A stretch of DNA of 64,000 bases, taken from Brevibacterium sp. p3-SID960 (lineage in GTDB: Bacteria; Actinomycetota; Actinomycetes; Actinomycetales; Brevibacteriaceae). Shown here one piece after another: positions 42,776 to 47,695 of the stretch (positions are counted from its first letter, which is position 1; each line of letters opens with the position of its first letter). The stretch lies in contig NZ_JALXKS010000012.1 of assembly GCF_025144725.1 (NCBI RefSeq), positions 3,407 to 67,406 on the forward strand, given 5' to 3'. A model generated the notes under the pieces. It was not told where the DNA came from. It was given only the letters and a program-made list of their open reading frames with translations, and ran no database searches. A program made the position numbers and the translations under genes.

Positions 42776-44086
42776 TCAGGCTTCCATGAGGAACCGGCCG
42801 AGAACCCGGGCGCCGAACTCAAGGGCTGAGACCGGCACCCGCTCGTCGACACCGTGGAACATCGCCGGGAAGTCCAGATCCGGGGTCAGACGCAGCGGTG
42901 CGAAGCCGTAGCCGGTGATCCCCAGCAGCGAGAGCGCCTTGTTGTCGGTGCCGCCCGAAAGCGTGTACGGCAGCACCGTGGCGTCCGGATCCTCCTCCTG
43001 CAGGGAGGCGACCATCGTGTCGACGAGCCGACCGCCGAAGGGTGATTCGAGAGCAGTGGCCACGATCTCCTCTTCGATGTCGACGCCCTCGCCGGCGAGC
43101 TCCTTGAGTTTGAGTCTGAGGTCCTCGTACTGACCGGGCAGGTGCCGGCAGTCGATGTAGGCCGAGGCCGTCGAGGGGATGACGTTGTGCTTGTACCCGG
43201 CTTCGAGCATCGACGGATTCGAGGTGTTGGCGAAAGTCGCGCCGACGAACTTGGCCACCGATCCGAGTTCGTCGAGCAGCTCGCCGTAGGTCTCTGCGCT
43301 GAATGGGATCCCGGTGAGCTCGGAGACGCCGACGAGCAGGTCACGGGTGGCCTGCGGCATCTGCTCAGGCCACTCGTACGCGCCGATCCGTGCGACCGCC
43401 TCGGCGAGCTTGGTGACCGGGTTGTCGCGGTTGATCTGGGAACCGTGCCCGGCGGTGCCGCGGGCGATGAGCTTGAGCCACGCGATGCCCTTCTCCGCAG
43501 TCTGCACGAGGTACACGCGCTGGCCGCGGATGTCGACGGAATAGCCGCCGACCTCGGAGATCGCCTCGGTGGCACCGTCGAACACCTCAGGATGGTTCTT
43601 GGCCATCCACTGTGAGCCGTAGAGTCCGCCAGCCTCCTCATCGGCGAAGAACACGATGATGAGATCCCGGCGCGGACGCAGATTCTCACGCATCATCGTC
43701 CGCACGACCGCGACGATCATCGCGTCCATGTCCTTCATGTCGACGGCCCCACGGCCCCAGACGAGACCATCGCGGATCTCCCCGGCGAACGGGTCGACAG
43801 ACCATTCCGCGGCATCGGCGGGCACGACGTCGGTGTGGCCGTGCACCACGAGCGCCGGCGCCTCGGGATCGGTGCCCGGCACCCGGGTCACGAGCGTCGC
43901 GCGTCCGGGGGCGGACTCGTAGATCTGCGACTCCAGGCCGACCTCGGCGAACCACGCGGCGATCTGGTCGGCGGCCGGGCGCTCGGGATTGCATCTGTTG
44001 TTGCCCCAGTTCTGCGTATCGATGCGGATGAGCTCCTGGCACAGGCGGGTGACCTCTGCCTCGGCGCTGGCGAACTGATGACTCAT
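42776..44086 (-). CDS. M20/M25/M40 family zinc metallopeptidase (dipeptidase-like)
   Basis: This 436-aa cytosolic di-zinc hydrolase has VVHGHTDVVP (zinc His, Asp), WGRGAVDMKDMDA (bridging Asp), FFADEEAGG (catalytic Glu, zinc Glu), a dimerisation domain (about residues 190-310), and a C-terminal MFHGVDERVP with the last zinc His. Related proteins remove acyl or amino acid groups from small peptides. The start is at the ATG 7 nt after GGAG, two codons inside the longest frame. Confidence 0.93.
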   Translation of the reverse strand: MSHQFASAEAEVTRLCQELIRIDTQNWGNNRCNPERPAADQIAAWFAEVGLESQIYESAPGRATLVTRVPGTDPEAPALVVHGHTDVVPADAAEWSVDPFAGEIRDGLVWGRGAVDMKDMDAMIVAVVRTMMRENLRPRRDLIIVFFADEEAGGLYGSQWMAKNHPEVFDGATEAISEVGGYSVDIRGQRVYLVQTAEKGIAWLKLIARGTAGHGSQINRDNPVTKLAEAVARIGAYEWPEQMPQATRDLLVGVSELTGIPFSAETYGELLDELGSVAKFVGATFANTSNPSMLEAGYKHNVIPSTASAYIDCRHLPGQYEDLRLKLKELAGEGVDIEEEIVATALESPFGGRLVDTMVASLQEEDPDATVLPYTLSGGTDNKALSLLGITGYGFAPLRLTPDLDFPAMFHGVDERVPVSALEFGARVLGRFLMEA

Positions 44087-44335
44087 CGACACTCTCCATT
44101 CTCACTTCCGGCGGTGCGGCCGGGCCGGCCTGAGGCGAGCGTACACCCGAAGCACATGCACGTCGGCAGCCGTTCGTCATCCGGAAATCGGCGAACCGCA
44201 GATGAATACCCCGTAACGCCTTTGCAGCCAGCGCCCTCCGGCGCGCCGGCACGTACGTGGGCGCGGAGCGCATATGACAGACTACGACTAAGTGTCCCGG
44301 CGCGCACGCGCCGCCGTCGATCGAGGAGGAGCAAG

Positions 44336-45625
44336 ATGAAGACTGTTGTCTGCGGTGGAGACGGGTTCTGCGGCTGGCCGACAGCCCTGCATCTCTCAGC
44401 GCGAGGCCACGACGTCGTTATCCTCGACAATCTCTCGCGCCGGGAGATCGACGAGGAGCTCGGTGCAGAGTCGCTGACCCCGATCGCCTCGATCGAAGAC
44501 CGCATCGCCGCCTGGGAGGAGCTGACTGGCAAGCGGATCGGCTTCGCCCAGATCGACCTGGCTCAGGACTACGAGGCGGTGCTGCGCCTGCTCGGCGAGT
44601 ACGCACCTGACACCGTCATCCACTTCGCCGAACAGCGCGCTGCGCCGTACTCGATGAAGTCCCCGGCACACAAGCGCTACACCGTCGACAACAACGTCAA
44701 CGCCACCCACAACCTGCTCGCCGCAATCGTCGAGAACGGTTCGGACATCCACCTTGTGCACCTGGGCACCATGGGCGTCTACGGATACGGCACCGCCGGG
44801 ATGGAGATCCCCGAGGGCTACCTCGACGTGCAGGTCACTGCCGACAAGGACGCCGAGGGACGGCCATGCGAGCCGTACCAGGTCGAACAGCAGATCCTGT
44901 ACCCGACCAACCCGGGTTCGATCTACCACATGACGAAGGTGCTCGACCAGCACCTGTTCGCCTACTACGCCAAGAACGACGCGCTGCGCATCACCGACCT
45001 GCACCAGGGCATCATCTGGGGCACGAACACCGCCGAGACCAAACTCGACGAACGGCTGGTCAACCGCTTCGACTACGACGGCGACTACGGCACCGTGCTC
45101 AACCGGTTCCTCATGCAGTCGGCGGTCGGCTACCCGCTGACCGTCCACGGCACCGGCGGTCAGACGCGCGCGTTCATCCACATCCAGGACATGGTCCGCT
45201 GCGTCGAGATCGCGGTGGACAATCCGCCTGCGGCCGGTGAGCGGGTCAAGATCTTCAACCAGCTGACCGAGACCCACCGGGTGCGCGAACTCGCCGAACT
45301 CATCTGCTCGATCACCGGTGCCCGCCTGGAGAACGTGCCCAATCCGCGGCACGAGTCGGCCGAGAACGACCTCCACGCCTCGAATGCGACGTTCCTGGCA
45401 CTCGGACTCAAGCCGACGACGCTGTCCGACGGGCTACTCATGGAGGTCAATGAGACCGCCAAGCGCTATGCCCACCGGGCGGACCTGTCGAAGATCCCCG
45501 CGTCCTCTGTCTGGACCAAGCACCAGCAGCCGGGTGTGCCGACCGTCCCGACCGACACCTCGGGCCTGGCAGATGCGCAGGCCAGCGGTGACCACGACGA
45601 GACGGCGGCGGTCTCCGGCAGCTGA
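44336..45625 (+). CDS. sqdB: UDP-sulfoquinovose synthase (SqdB/SQD1-like)
   Basis: This 429-aa SDR enzyme closely resembles plant SQD1 and bacterial SqdB, which combine UDP-glucose and sulfite to form UDP-sulfoquinovose. Family-specific sequence: GGDGFCGWPTALHLS (NAD site), SLTPIASIEDRI, HFAEQRAAPYSM, LGTMGVYG with Thr145, YHMTK with Tyr197 and Lys201, and FDYDGDYGTVLNRFLMQSAVGYPL followed by GGQTRAFIHIQDM. There is a 15-residue insertion between Thr145 and Tyr197 relative to SQD1, and a C-terminal tail of about 40 residues. GAGGAGGA precedes the ATG. The stop overlaps the next start by one base. Confidence 0.88.
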   Translation: MKTVVCGGDGFCGWPTALHLSARGHDVVILDNLSRREIDEELGAESLTPIASIEDRIAAWEELTGKRIGFAQIDLAQDYEAVLRLLGEYAPDTVIHFAEQRAAPYSMKSPAHKRYTVDNNVNATHNLLAAIVENGSDIHLVHLGTMGVYGYGTAGMEIPEGYLDVQVTADKDAEGRPCEPYQVEQQILYPTNPGSIYHMTKVLDQHLFAYYAKNDALRITDLHQGIIWGTNTAETKLDERLVNRFDYDGDYGTVLNRFLMQSAVGYPLTVHGTGGQTRAFIHIQDMVRCVEIAVDNPPAAGERVKIFNQLTETHRVRELAELICSITGARLENVPNPRHESAENDLHASNATFLALGLKPTTLSDGLLMEVNETAKRYAHRADLSKIPASSVWTKHQQPGVPTVPTDTSGLADAQASGDHDETAAVSGS

Positions 45626-46812
45626 TGCGCATCGCCCTCTTCACGGAAGTCTTCCTTCCGAAAATCGACGGGGTCGTCACCCGGCTCATGGGCACCCTCG
45701 ACCACCTGGCCGAAATGGGTCATGAGGTCGTCGTGTTCGCGCCGGGCCATCCGCCGGCCCGCTATGCGGGGTTCCGGGTGGTTCCGGTGCGCTCGGTGTC
45801 CTTCAAGCCGTGGTATCCCGAGCTGCGCGTCGGCCTGCCGACTTCGAACATCGCCAGGACGATGGAGCGCTTCCACCCGCATGTCGTCCATGCCGTCAAT
45901 CCGATCTGGCTGGCCGCCTACGGCACGATGTCCTCGAAGCGGCGCGACCTGCCGATGCTCGCGTCGTTCCATACCAACGTGCCCGAATACACGCAGCGGC
46001 TCGGACTTGAGTGGATCACCGACACGACCGAACGGTGGATCACGTGGATCCACAACCTCGCAGAGGTCAATCTGTGCACCTCGCAGCCGATGATCGAGCA
46101 GGCTGCGGCTGCCGGGATCAAGAACCTCGACCTCTGGCCGCGGGCGGTCGACACGCAGACCTACCATCCGGGCAACTACTCGCAGCGGATGCGTGAGCGA
46201 CTCACCGACGGGCATCCAGAGGATCGGCTGCTCGTCTATGTCGGGCGGATGTCGAAGGAGAAGGACCTCGATGTGCTGCGCGGCGTCATCGACCGCGCTC
46301 CGGAGGGCACCCGGTTGGCAATGGTCGGATCCGGCCCGCACCTGGGCCAGCTGGAGGCCGAGTTCGCCGGCACGCCGACGGTCTTCACCGGGTACATGAG
46401 CGGTCAGGAGCTGGCCGAGGCCTACGCCTCAGCCGATGTGTTCGTCTTCCCCTCGACGACTGAGACGCTGGGGCTGGTGGCACTGGAGTCGATGGCCTCG
46501 GGAGTGCCGGTCGTCGCTGCCCGGGCTGGTGGCATCCCGTTCGCCGTGCCCGATGGTGTCGGCGGTCTGCTGTGCAAACCCCATTCGAGTGAGGACATGT
46601 CAGCTCAGGTCAATCGTCTGCTGGCAGATGAGAGCCTGCGCTCGGCATTGGCCGCCGGAGGCAAGGCCGAGATGGAGCAGCACAGCTGGCGGGCAGCGAC
46701 GGAGAAGCTCGTCGAGAGCTACGAGCTGGCAATCGAACGGCACTGGTCGGACTATGTGCCACCGCGTTGGCGGATCAAGACGTTCGGGCGGCCGATGCCG
46801 CGTGCGACCTGA
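45625..46812 (+). CDS. sqdX: Sulfoquinovosyltransferase-like GT4 glycosyltransferase (SqdX/SQD2-like)
   Basis: This 395-aa GT-B glycosyltransferase is very similar to SQD2, which moves sulfoquinovose from the UDP sugar to diacylglycerol. Shared features: EVFLPKIDGVVTRL, SFHTNVPEYTQRLGLEWI, LDLWPRAVDTQTYHP, MRERLTDGHPEDRLLVYVGR, and the donor-site EX7E stretch TTETLGLVALESMASGVPVVAARAGGIP. Membrane association is likely peripheral. TGATG overlap couples it to sqdB. A mannosyltransferase of the PimB/MgtA type is the main alternative, but the sqdB partner argues for sulfolipid. Confidence 0.82.
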   Translation: MRIALFTEVFLPKIDGVVTRLMGTLDHLAEMGHEVVVFAPGHPPARYAGFRVVPVRSVSFKPWYPELRVGLPTSNIARTMERFHPHVVHAVNPIWLAAYGTMSSKRRDLPMLASFHTNVPEYTQRLGLEWITDTTERWITWIHNLAEVNLCTSQPMIEQAAAAGIKNLDLWPRAVDTQTYHPGNYSQRMRERLTDGHPEDRLLVYVGRMSKEKDLDVLRGVIDRAPEGTRLAMVGSGPHLGQLEAEFAGTPTVFTGYMSGQELAEAYASADVFVFPSTTETLGLVALESMASGVPVVAARAGGIPFAVPDGVGGLLCKPHSSEDMSAQVNRLLADESLRSALAAGGKAEMEQHSWRAATEKLVESYELAIERHWSDYVPPRWRIKTFGRPMPRAT

Positions 46813-46823
46813 ACGAGCCGGGA

Positions 46824-47450
46824 TCAGGCCCGCTCGGCTGCGACCTTGGCGTTGTTCCAGCTGCCGAAGTGATTGCGCACCGAGGCACCTGAGGGCCTGG
46901 TCCGGCCGGCGGCGCGCTCGTCCTTGGCCCATGCCTCATAGCGGTTGAAGCTCTCAGCTCCCCCATCTGCGCGCGCATCGGTGAGGAAATCGATGACAGC
47001 GCTGCGGAATGCCTCAGGAGAGTAGTGGAAGGCACCTCTCTTGCGGCCGCCGCCCGAGGTGGGGAAGCCCAGTGAGCTCAGCGCATCGTTCCAGAAGTTC
47101 GTACCCAGGCGCTTGCGAACGGTCTGGCTCGTCGGCGGCCAGATCTGGTGACCGGCCCGGCCGGCGAACTCCAGTCCGCGCACGGCACGCGCTCGCGCGG
47201 CATCGTAGGTGTCCTTCGAGAACGGCACAGCTGATCCGGTGGTGAGCTCGGTTCGGGTGGCGGCGATCAATGCGAAGACGTTGATCACTTCCGCACGTGT
47301 CCTGCCCTGCTCGTGCAGGATTTCCTCGAGTTCCGCAGCGGTCTCGAATTCGACTGCACCGCTGATCTCCGCTGCCGGTGTCAGGTTCTGTGACAGCGCG
47401 TACAGATAGTGGACGGCGGCAGTGACGAGCTCACTTCGCGTAGAATGCAC
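46824..47450 (-). CDS. Protein with HNH-endonuclease-associated repeats, no nuclease domain
   Basis: This 208-aa protein has two copies of a repeat known from homing-endonuclease-associated regions: PPTSQTVRKRLGTNFWNDAL in the middle and PSGASVRNHFGSWNNAKVAAE at the C terminus, each shaped like a small DNA-binding helix-turn-helix. No HNH or other nuclease motif is visible. A helical N-terminal region (residues 1-95) is unrecognised. DNA binding is inferred. The start was set at the GTG 6 nt after AAGGAAG. It lies beside the tRNA-Leu gene and ends 12 nt from sqdX. Confidence 0.65.
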   Translation of the reverse strand: MHSTRSELVTAAVHYLYALSQNLTPAAEISGAVEFETAAELEEILHEQGRTRAEVINVFALIAATRTELTTGSAVPFSKDTYDAARARAVRGLEFAGRAGHQIWPPTSQTVRKRLGTNFWNDALSSLGFPTSGGGRKRGAFHYSPEAFRSAVIDFLTDARADGGAESFNRYEAWAKDERAAGRTRPSGASVRNHFGSWNNAKVAAERA

Positions 47451-47552
47451 TGATGACTTCCTTGTCTTGCCGGGAACACGGTTCGGATGGGCTGCATCCT
47501 CACCGGCGAGTATGTCACAGAATCCCGTGCAGACGGAGGGGTCGCCGACATG

Positions 47553-47591
47553 CTGAAAGCCCCGGAACCTCAATGGTTCCGGGGCTTTCAG
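47553..47591. terminator. Hairpin terminator downstream of tRNA-Leu
   Basis: A perfect 17-bp stem (47553-47569 with 47575-47591) and a 5-nt loop lie 17 nt past the tRNA 3' end. The stem base is AAAGCC/GGCTTT. Confidence 0.75.
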
Positions 47592-47607
47592 CGGCCTGAG
47601 CCGGTTG

Positions 47608-47695
47608 TGCGCGAGGGGGGACTTGAACCCCCACGCCCGATATAGTGGGCACTAGCACCTCAAGCTAGCGCGTCTACCAATTCCGCCACCCGCGC
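47608..47695 (-). tRNA. tRNA-Leu (GAG)
   Basis: An 88-nt class II tRNA. The acceptor stem GCGCGGG pairs with CTCGCGC (one G-U) and the discriminator is A. The D-arm sequence is GGAATTGGTAGAC. The anticodon stem CTAGC/GCTAG encloses the loop TTGAGGT, giving anticodon GAG (47659-47661) for CUC/CUU. A long variable arm (TGCCC...GGGCG) and the T-arm GGGGGTTCAAGTCCCCC confirm leucine class. CCA is not encoded. Confidence 0.96.

What the first reader, a model, noticed from the sequence alone, without database searches (positions are those of the whole stretch)
44336..46812. Two-gene sulfolipid (SQDG) pathway in a non-photosynthetic actinomycete
A 429-aa SQD1/SqdB-like UDP-sulfoquinovose synthase with Thr145, Tyr197 and Lys201 is coupled by a one-base overlap to a GT4 glycosyltransferase whose sequence follows plant SQD2 (SFHTNVPEY, LWPRAVDTQTYHP, MRERLTDGHPED). 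In established biology this pair makes sulfoquinovosyl diacylglycerol in chloroplasts and cyanobacteria and in a few other bacteria. Inference: this organism makes an anionic sulfolipid, which would be unusual for its membrane and could replace phosphatidylglycerol under phosphate limitation. The 15-residue insertion in SqdB is distinctive.
Basis: partly seen in the sequence, partly recalled or inferred. Interest (0 to 1): 0.72.

Follow-up and report, generated by a model that had tools for sequence, protein, structure and literature searches.

The report
Cyanobacterial-type sulfolipid gene pair in Brevibacterium
A non-photosynthetic bacterium carries the two-gene recipe that cyanobacteria use to make a sulfur-containing membrane lipid; by sequence the pair looks intact and genuine, and related pairs are common in its bacterial group, so the find is sound but not exotic.

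Summary
44336-45625 (+) encodes a 429-aa UDP-sulfoquinovose synthase, 45625-46812 (+) a 395-aa GT4 glycosyltransferase; they share one base. The host is a Brevibacterium near B. luteolum. The epimerase folds like plant SQD1 (Foldseek ranks 1-3) but lies in a second SqdB clade (100/99) with S. meliloti SqdB, Rhodobacteraceae and some cyanobacteria. This clade has Val where SQD1/Agl3 have a Glu that aids dehydration, and an insertion; the insertion is thus a clade trait. The glycosyltransferase groups with cyanobacterial SqdX (99/94), apart from a ~35% paralogue. In cyanobacteria one SqdX lineage partners both SqdB types, which points to one product. The pair is a present/absent module (12 of 37 Brevibacterium genomes) between an M20 peptidase and tRNA-Leu. 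Best reading: UDP-glucose plus sulfite gives UDP-sulfoquinovose, which is moved to diacylglycerol, giving SQDG. Not shown: any lipid, phosphate control or replacement of phosphatidylglycerol; PHO-box-like repeats upstream looked like ribosome sites of divergent genes. The kind is known and common in related actinomycetes, though NCBI's family cut-off leaves this SqdB clade out.

The parts
44336..45625 (+). sqdB-like UDP-sulfoquinovose synthase, 429 aa (P0001)
   Evidence: ORF; NF041015 331 bits, below the cut-off of 575, as is S. meliloti SqdB at 332; SQD1 top in PDB by sequence and fold; tree
45625..46812 (+). sqdX-like GT4 glycosyltransferase, 395 aa (P0002)
   Evidence: ORF, Pfam GT4/GT1 domains, tree with cyanobacterial SqdX, co-occurrence
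44325..44331 (+). GGAGGAG, likely ribosome-binding site of sqdB, four bases before the ATG
   Evidence: read from the sequence; AGGAG present at this place in the 10 Brevibacterium rows aligned
44765..44791 (+). active-site loop GTMGVYGYG (residues 144-152): Thr145; Val148 where SQD1 has Glu148 and Agl3 Glu147
   Evidence: alignments; residues 150-155 have pLDDT under 50
44846..44884 (+). 13-residue part of the insertion (about residues 171-183) relative to SQD1; modelled between and in strands 163-171 and 177-187
   Evidence: shorter versions in the rest of the clade
44924..44938 (+). YHMTK, catalytic YxxxK motif (Tyr197, Lys201)
42776..44092 (-). M20 family peptidase, divergent neighbour; left border of the present/absent module
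   Evidence: Pfam; orthologue in 25 of 25 pair-less Brevibacterium
47607..47695 (-). tRNA-Leu (GAG), right-hand landmark of the module's site
   Evidence: ARAGORN

Best explanation
The two genes are a coupled sqdB-sqdX unit. SqdB oxidises UDP-glucose at C4 with tightly bound NAD+, removes water across C5-C6 and adds sulfite at C6, giving UDP-sulfoquinovose. SqdX moves the sulfoquinovose to diacylglycerol, giving the anionic lipid SQDG. Shown here by sequence: the genes, their overlap, family placement and co-inheritance. Inferred: the reactions, the diacylglycerol acceptor, the lipid and translational coupling. In this clade the Glu that helps dehydration in Agl3 is a Val, so another residue or the loop must do that job.
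For: SQD1 is the best solved relative by sequence and by fold (Foldseek ranks 1-3, TM-score 0.85 by query and 0.92-0.93 by target; rank 4 has 0.58 and 0.78; model pLDDT 84). His96, Thr145, Met146, Tyr149, Ser195, Tyr197, His198 and Lys201 are kept; Arg101 of the EQR motif is kept too (by eye). S. meliloti SqdB, in a ybgC-sqdB-GT8-(283-aa ORF)-ruvB locus, is 63% identical, shares the Val loop and scores the same in NF041015 (332 and 331 bits). The title of Weissenmayer 2000, seen only in the reference list of PMC5638391, says that a gene essential for SQDG was disrupted in S. meliloti; that it is this gene is recalled. In the phylum of a cyanobacterial genome 48 of 117 genomes have SqdB and the same 48 have a P0002 homologue at E 2.3e-90 or better; the genes are adjacent with sqdB first in 32 of 48. 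Seven of the 48 use a Val-type SqdB and three of these sit beside SqdX; SqdX forms one cyanobacterial clade with partners of both SqdB types in it. In Brevibacterium both genes are present together in 12 of 37 genomes and absent together in 25.
Against: No lipid or enzyme data. The SqdB falls below NCBI's cut-off (331 of 575 bits), though so do all six relatives tested, S. meliloti SqdB among them. The Glu of Agl3 whose alanine mutant keeps 12% activity (PMC4388408, section read) is absent. All 15 Val-type SqdB loci of other actinobacterial classes (L053-L067), and 13 of 14 Glu-type ones (L073-L086), have no P0002-like ORF in the fetched flanks, mostly about 5 kb, so sqdB alone does not prove SQDG. 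Plant SQD2 was not in the tree.
Confidence: 0.8

Rival explanations
1. SqdB makes UDP-sulfoquinovose, but the GT puts it on another acceptor: a different lipid, or a surface glycan or glycoprotein, as in the Sulfolobus N-glycan.
For: Sulfoquinovose is part of N-glycans of S. acidocaldarius (PMC12890257, passage seen). A Val-type SqdB on a Rhodococcus plasmid is two genes before a GT2, and 15 of 15 Val-type loci from other actinobacterial classes lack a P0002-like GT in the fetched flanks.
Against: The window GT belongs to the SqdX clade (99/94) and not with the general paralogues; SQD2/SqdX moves sulfoquinovose to diacylglycerol (PMC8227023 passage).
Confidence: 0.12
2. The SqdB has lost sulfite chemistry and makes another UDP-sugar (a 4-keto, 5,6-ene or epimerised product); the GT then makes a neutral glycolipid.
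For: Val148 replaces the dehydration Glu; the loop 150-155 is modelled with pLDDT under 50.
Against: S. meliloti SqdB has the same Val, and three cyanobacterial genomes have the Val-type beside an ordinary SqdX, so the loop seems compatible with SQDG.
Confidence: 0.04
3. The GT is a mannosyl- or glucuronosyl-diacylglycerol pathway enzyme (PimB/MgtA type) and its place beside sqdB is incidental.
For: GT4 domains; general GT4 hits in NCBIfam, best GlcN-PG synthase at 186 of 480 bits. MgtA and PimB were not in the trees.
Against: Tree and co-occurrence; the general paralogues are a separate clade at 32-37% identity, though I could not name them as MgtA or PimB; two cyanobacterial SqdX give the same weak GlcN-PG hit (157 and 161 bits).
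Confidence: 0.04

Closest known systems
Cyanobacterial sqdB-sqdX pair (SQDG synthesis)
   Same: Same order, sqdB then sqdX; GT 41-48% identical in the alignment (16 rows) and in one clade; three cyanobacterial genomes have a Val-type SqdB beside sqdX.
   Different: One-base overlap here against gaps of 12-30 bases in those three; longer SqdB insertion and C-tail; non-photosynthetic host.
Sinorhizobium meliloti sqdB locus (sqdBDC type, as in Rhodobacter sphaeroides)
   Same: SqdB of the same clade with the GTMGVYGY loop, 63% identical.
   Different: There the next gene is a GT8, not a GT4 SqdX. R. sphaeroides SqdB itself was not compared; its sqdBDC operon is known to me from a passage of PMC11346425.
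Plant SQD1/SQD2
   Same: SQD1 is the nearest solved structure, 46% identical over 400 alignment columns.
   Different: SQD1 is in the other SqdB clade (Glu loop, no insertion). SQD2 was not compared: no sequence was available.
Agl3 of Sulfolobus acidocaldarius
   Same: Same enzyme family; the positions of the essential His, Arg, Met, Tyr and Lys of Agl3 are kept (mutants in PMC4388408; mapped through SQD1).
   Different: Glu147 of Agl3 is Val here; glycan rather than lipid context. Agl3 itself was not in my tree; a Metallosphaera relative falls in the other clade.

Membership tests
UDP-sulfoquinovose synthase (SqdB/SQD1) | SDR fold closest to SQD1 | tested here: met
UDP-sulfoquinovose synthase (SqdB/SQD1) | Catalytic Thr, Tyr, Lys and the essential His, Arg and Met named for Agl3 | tested here: met
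   Arg101 by eye
UDP-sulfoquinovose synthase (SqdB/SQD1) | Glu of the GTMGEY loop | tested here: not met
   Val148. All 29 Val-clade rows of the tree lack it, S. meliloti SqdB among them, so I take it as a mark of the other clade and not of the enzyme
UDP-sulfoquinovose synthase (SqdB/SQD1) | Score over the NCBIfam NF041015 cut-off (575 bits) | tested here: not met
   331 bits; the six relatives tested fail too: S. meliloti 332, Pelagovum 344, cyanobacterial loci 326, 476, 481 and 555, so this cut-off is no test of SQDG-type SqdB
UDP-sulfoquinovose synthase (SqdB/SQD1) | Groups with a SqdB known from genetics | tested here: met
   In the Val clade with S. meliloti SqdB (100/99 for the clade); the closer grouping of the two is weak (86/58)
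UDP-sulfoquinovose synthase (SqdB/SQD1) | Makes UDP-sulfoquinovose from UDP-glucose and sulfite | not testable with these tools
   -
SQDG synthase SqdX | GT4 domains, full length | tested here: met
SQDG synthase SqdX | Groups with cyanobacterial SqdX and not with general GT4 paralogues | tested here: met
   99/94 in 53 rows; 93 SH-aLRT in 68 rows
SQDG synthase SqdX | Linked to and co-inherited with sqdB | tested here: met
   12 of 12 carriers, 0 of 25 non-carriers in Brevibacterium
SQDG synthase SqdX | Groups with plant SQD2 | not tested
   No SQD2 sequence was fetched
SQDG synthase SqdX | Transfers sulfoquinovose to diacylglycerol | not testable with these tools
   -

The most novel reading that the evidence does not exclude
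SQDG is a common but overlooked membrane lipid of non-photosynthetic actinomycetes (Brevibacterium, Citricoccus, Gulosibacter, Ornithinimicrobium and kin), carried as a two-gene cassette that comes and goes at one chromosomal site, and made by a SqdB clade that carries out the dehydration without the Glu thought to help it in Agl3; current annotation leaves it nameless because the family cut-off excludes this clade.
Probability: 0.45. Interest if true: 0.5.

Novelty: new member of a known kind. Interest (0 to 1): 0.3.

Why it matters
If the strain makes SQDG, an anionic, phosphorus-free lipid usually treated as a mark of photosynthesis would also mark ordinary actinomycetes, which bears on lipid biomarkers and on the sources of environmental sulfoquinovose. 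The clean empty site in related species gives natural with/without pairs for testing what the lipid does. The missing Glu makes the dehydration step of the enzyme testable by comparing two clades.

Tried and rejected
Phosphate control: GTTCACC-type 11-base direct repeats (PHO box; consensus recalled, from no call) were scored upstream of 15 Val-type and 17 Glu-type loci and against other spacings (13 Val-type, leaving out near-duplicates L002 and L009, and 17 Glu-type). For three copies, spacing 11 stood out in the Glu group (14.97 against 12.62-13.35) and hardly in the Val group (14.31 against 14.15 at spacing 15); for two copies 10.88 against 9.68-10.06, and 10.77 against 11.00 at spacing 15. 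Read by eye, the repeats in several Brevibacterium loci and in the Glu group hold the reverse complement of a ribosome site plus ATG of a possible divergent gene (those genes were not checked), so I do not count them as PHO boxes. The window's own best repeat (p 0.007 from 300 shuffles, uncorrected, minus strand) stays a weak lead. No sigma-70 or terminator match was found.

Paralogue as MgtA: the ~35% Brevibacterium paralogue lies near guaA and an ECF-type ATPase gene in the two loci checked (ten proteins), with no menaquinone gene among them, so I could not name it.

Recent horizontal transfer from base composition: no sign; GC 65.6% against 67.3% for the window; GC3 0.88 and 0.84, where 13 neighbours span 0.67-0.87. 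Gain against loss in Brevibacterium was not resolved.

Literature: ten searches of an open-licence library listed no paper whose title or shown abstract reports SQDG in Brevibacterium or its kin; one search matched 240 papers and listed 20, and older subscription work is not held, so this is no proof of absence. Papers seen: PMC4388408 (abstract, sections 5, 6, 11); passages only of PMC8227023, PMC4796936, PMC5638391, PMC11346425, PMC11278827, PMC12890257, PMC9594981, PMC13086504.

Full report
Observation. They form a lone two-gene unit: the M20 peptidase upstream is divergent, and the ORF downstream (46824-47573) points the other way. The window's own assembly is not held.

The epimerase. In the PDB by sequence the best hits are Arabidopsis SQD1 (E 2e-101 to 1e-100), far ahead of UDP-glucuronate decarboxylase (7e-11). 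An AlphaFold2 model (32 sequences, pLDDT 84, pTM 0.85) has the three SQD1 entries as Foldseek ranks 1-3, TM-score 0.85 by query and 0.92-0.93 by target, 46% identity; rank 4 falls to 0.58 and 0.78. The loop 150-155 has pLDDT under 50, and no coordinates were at hand, so I cannot say what replaces the missing Glu or whether the sulfite channel is kept. In SQD1 numbering His96, Thr145, Met146, Tyr149, Ser180, Tyr182, His183 and Lys186 are kept, Ser185 is Thr, and Glu148 is Val.

Two clades. In 58 SqdB sequences, with the loop and insertion columns left out, the rows with GTMGVY (GSIGVY in one) and the rows without form the two sides of one branch (100/99). The Val side holds the window, other Brevibacterium, Corynebacterium, Micrococcus, Citricoccus, Cellulosimicrobium, Gulosibacter, Ornithinimicrobium, S. 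meliloti, Pelagovum, Rhodococcus, R. rhizogenes, cyanobacteria and actinobacteria of other classes; the other side holds SQD1, cyanobacteria, Metallosphaera and further actinobacteria. One row on that other side, Pseudonocardia, has Lys instead of Glu. [quoted passage not shown] that these are my two clades is an inference. So the insertion called distinctive is a clade feature, longest in some of this Brevibacterium group and shorter elsewhere.

Does the Val matter? In Agl3 the alanine mutants of Glu147 and Tyr148 keep 12% and 15% activity, those of His95, Arg101, Met145, Tyr182 and Lys186 are inactive, and the one of Thr144 is fully active (PMC4388408, section read). The Val clade lacks the Glu. 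Yet S. meliloti SqdB has Val as well. The locus used for it lies between ybgC and ruvB, on a record labelled pSymB, and is followed by a GT8 gene and a 283-aa ORF, the order expected for sqdBDC (recalled). The title of the genetic study, seen only in a reference list (PMC5638391), says that a gene essential for SQDG was disrupted in S. meliloti; the link between that gene and this locus is my inference.

The glycosyltransferase. In 53 GT4 sequences the actinobacterial partners of Val-type SqdB, the cyanobacterial homologues and two actinobacterial partners of Glu-type SqdB form one group (99/94). The actinobacterial paralogues form another, with one Streptomyces protein (100/100), and MshA-like proteins (none over the MshA cut-off) a third. 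A quick tree of all 68 rows gives the same grouping (93). Mean identity to the window GT is 45% for cyanobacteria (16 rows), 34.5% for paralogues (13) and 22% for MshA-like proteins (4). A full-length paralogue of this 33-38% kind is listed in 36 of the 37 Brevibacterium genomes (all but G015). The place of the Anaerolineae row L169 is unsure (95/59). Plant SQD2, MgtA and PimB were not in the trees.

Co-occurrence in cyanobacteria. I drew 117 genomes from the phylum of G351, the genome behind a record titled uncultured cyanobacterium. 48 have SqdB at E 1e-30 or better, and the same 48 have a P0002 homologue at E 2.3e-90 or better; three further genomes have only a weak GT hit (1e-31 to 1e-34). 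In 32 of the 48 the genes are within 1.5 kb on one strand, sqdB first in all 32; in 16 they are not. Seven of the 48 SqdBs are 63-69% identical to the window and all seven carry GTMGVYGY; three of these seven adjoin SqdX. Since SqdX is one cyanobacterial clade (100/99) holding partners of both SqdB types, the simplest reading is that the two SqdB types make the same product. This is my strongest argument for the product.

Co-occurrence in actinobacteria. Of 37 Brevibacterium genomes 12 have SqdB at 75-99% identity, the same 12 have the GT at 70-99% right beside it (one cut by a contig end), and the other 25 have neither. In the order, 48 of 396 genomes have some SqdB: 12 at 73-99% and 36 at 45-49% identity. 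Of 23 new loci read, 5 of 5 Val-type have the GT within 36 bases; of 18 Glu-type, 15 have a P0002-like GT (37-48% identity) within 100 bases, 2 about 1.3 kb away and 1 not in the flanks; of these GTs none but that of G047, fetched earlier, was in a tree. Against this, 15 of 15 Val-type and 13 of 14 Glu-type loci from other classes of the phylum have no P0002-like ORF in the fetched flanks, so other partners or other uses of sulfoquinovose exist.

Module. All 25 pair-less Brevibacterium keep the M20 peptidase. In the 8 of these 25 whose surroundings I fetched, the order transporter-M20-MaoC-type gene-SDR-two more genes is kept without the pair. A tRNA-Leu (GAG) lies at the site in the window and in all 10 loci scanned, 2 with and 8 without the pair. 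So sqdB-sqdX comes and goes as a unit between the M20 gene and the tRNA. Composition gives no sign of recent arrival.

Annotation. NF041015 has a cut-off of 575 bits; the window scores 331, S. meliloti SqdB 332, Pelagovum 344, cyanobacterial loci 326, 476, 481 and 555. In 296 genomes of the phylum none exceeds the cut-off. Among the 120 proteins listed, NCBI names are mostly NAD-dependent epimerase/dehydratase family protein, with UDP-sulfoquinovose synthase for two Brevibacterium species and for the JGI entries.

Known or new. Actinobacterial genes were already in the 2015 Agl3 tree of UDP-sulfoquinovose synthases (Mycobacterium, Propionibacterium, Saccharopolyspora), and a Gram-positive said to supplement its membrane with sulfolipids, Bacillus coahuilensis, is cited in PMC12890257 (passage; that it is Gram-positive is recalled). 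The window is therefore a new member of a known kind. Surprise for a specialist is modest: SQDG in these actinomycetes did not turn up in the ten searches I ran, and it is easily tested.

Noticed in passing
46824-47573 (-) and 47607-47695 (-): A 249-aa protein with a marginal homing-endonuclease-associated repeat (PF18780) next to tRNA-Leu(GAG); a 39% relative stands near the same spot in pair-less G010 (L305) and a 44% one in L071. The spot looks like a tRNA-linked variable site.
   Followed up: partly
L053-L067: Val-type SqdB without a P0002-like glycosyltransferase in the fetched flanks in other actinobacterial classes; the use of their sulfoquinovose is unknown.
   Followed up: no
L092 (Rhodococcus qingshengii plasmid) and L094 (Pelagovum plasmid): Plasmid-borne Val-type sqdB: one two genes before a GT2, with a SulP transporter and an alkyl-sulfatase-like gene near; the other directly before a PAPS reductase, which could supply sulfite.
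   Followed up: no
L093 (Pseudonocardia autotrophica plasmid): SqdB relative with GTLGKY, Lys in place of the Glu, with a cysteine-synthase-family gene about 1.2 kb downstream.
   Followed up: no
NCBIfam NF041015: The UDP-sulfoquinovose synthase model has a cut-off that leaves out S. meliloti SqdB and the cyanobacterial SqdBs tested.
   Followed up: partly
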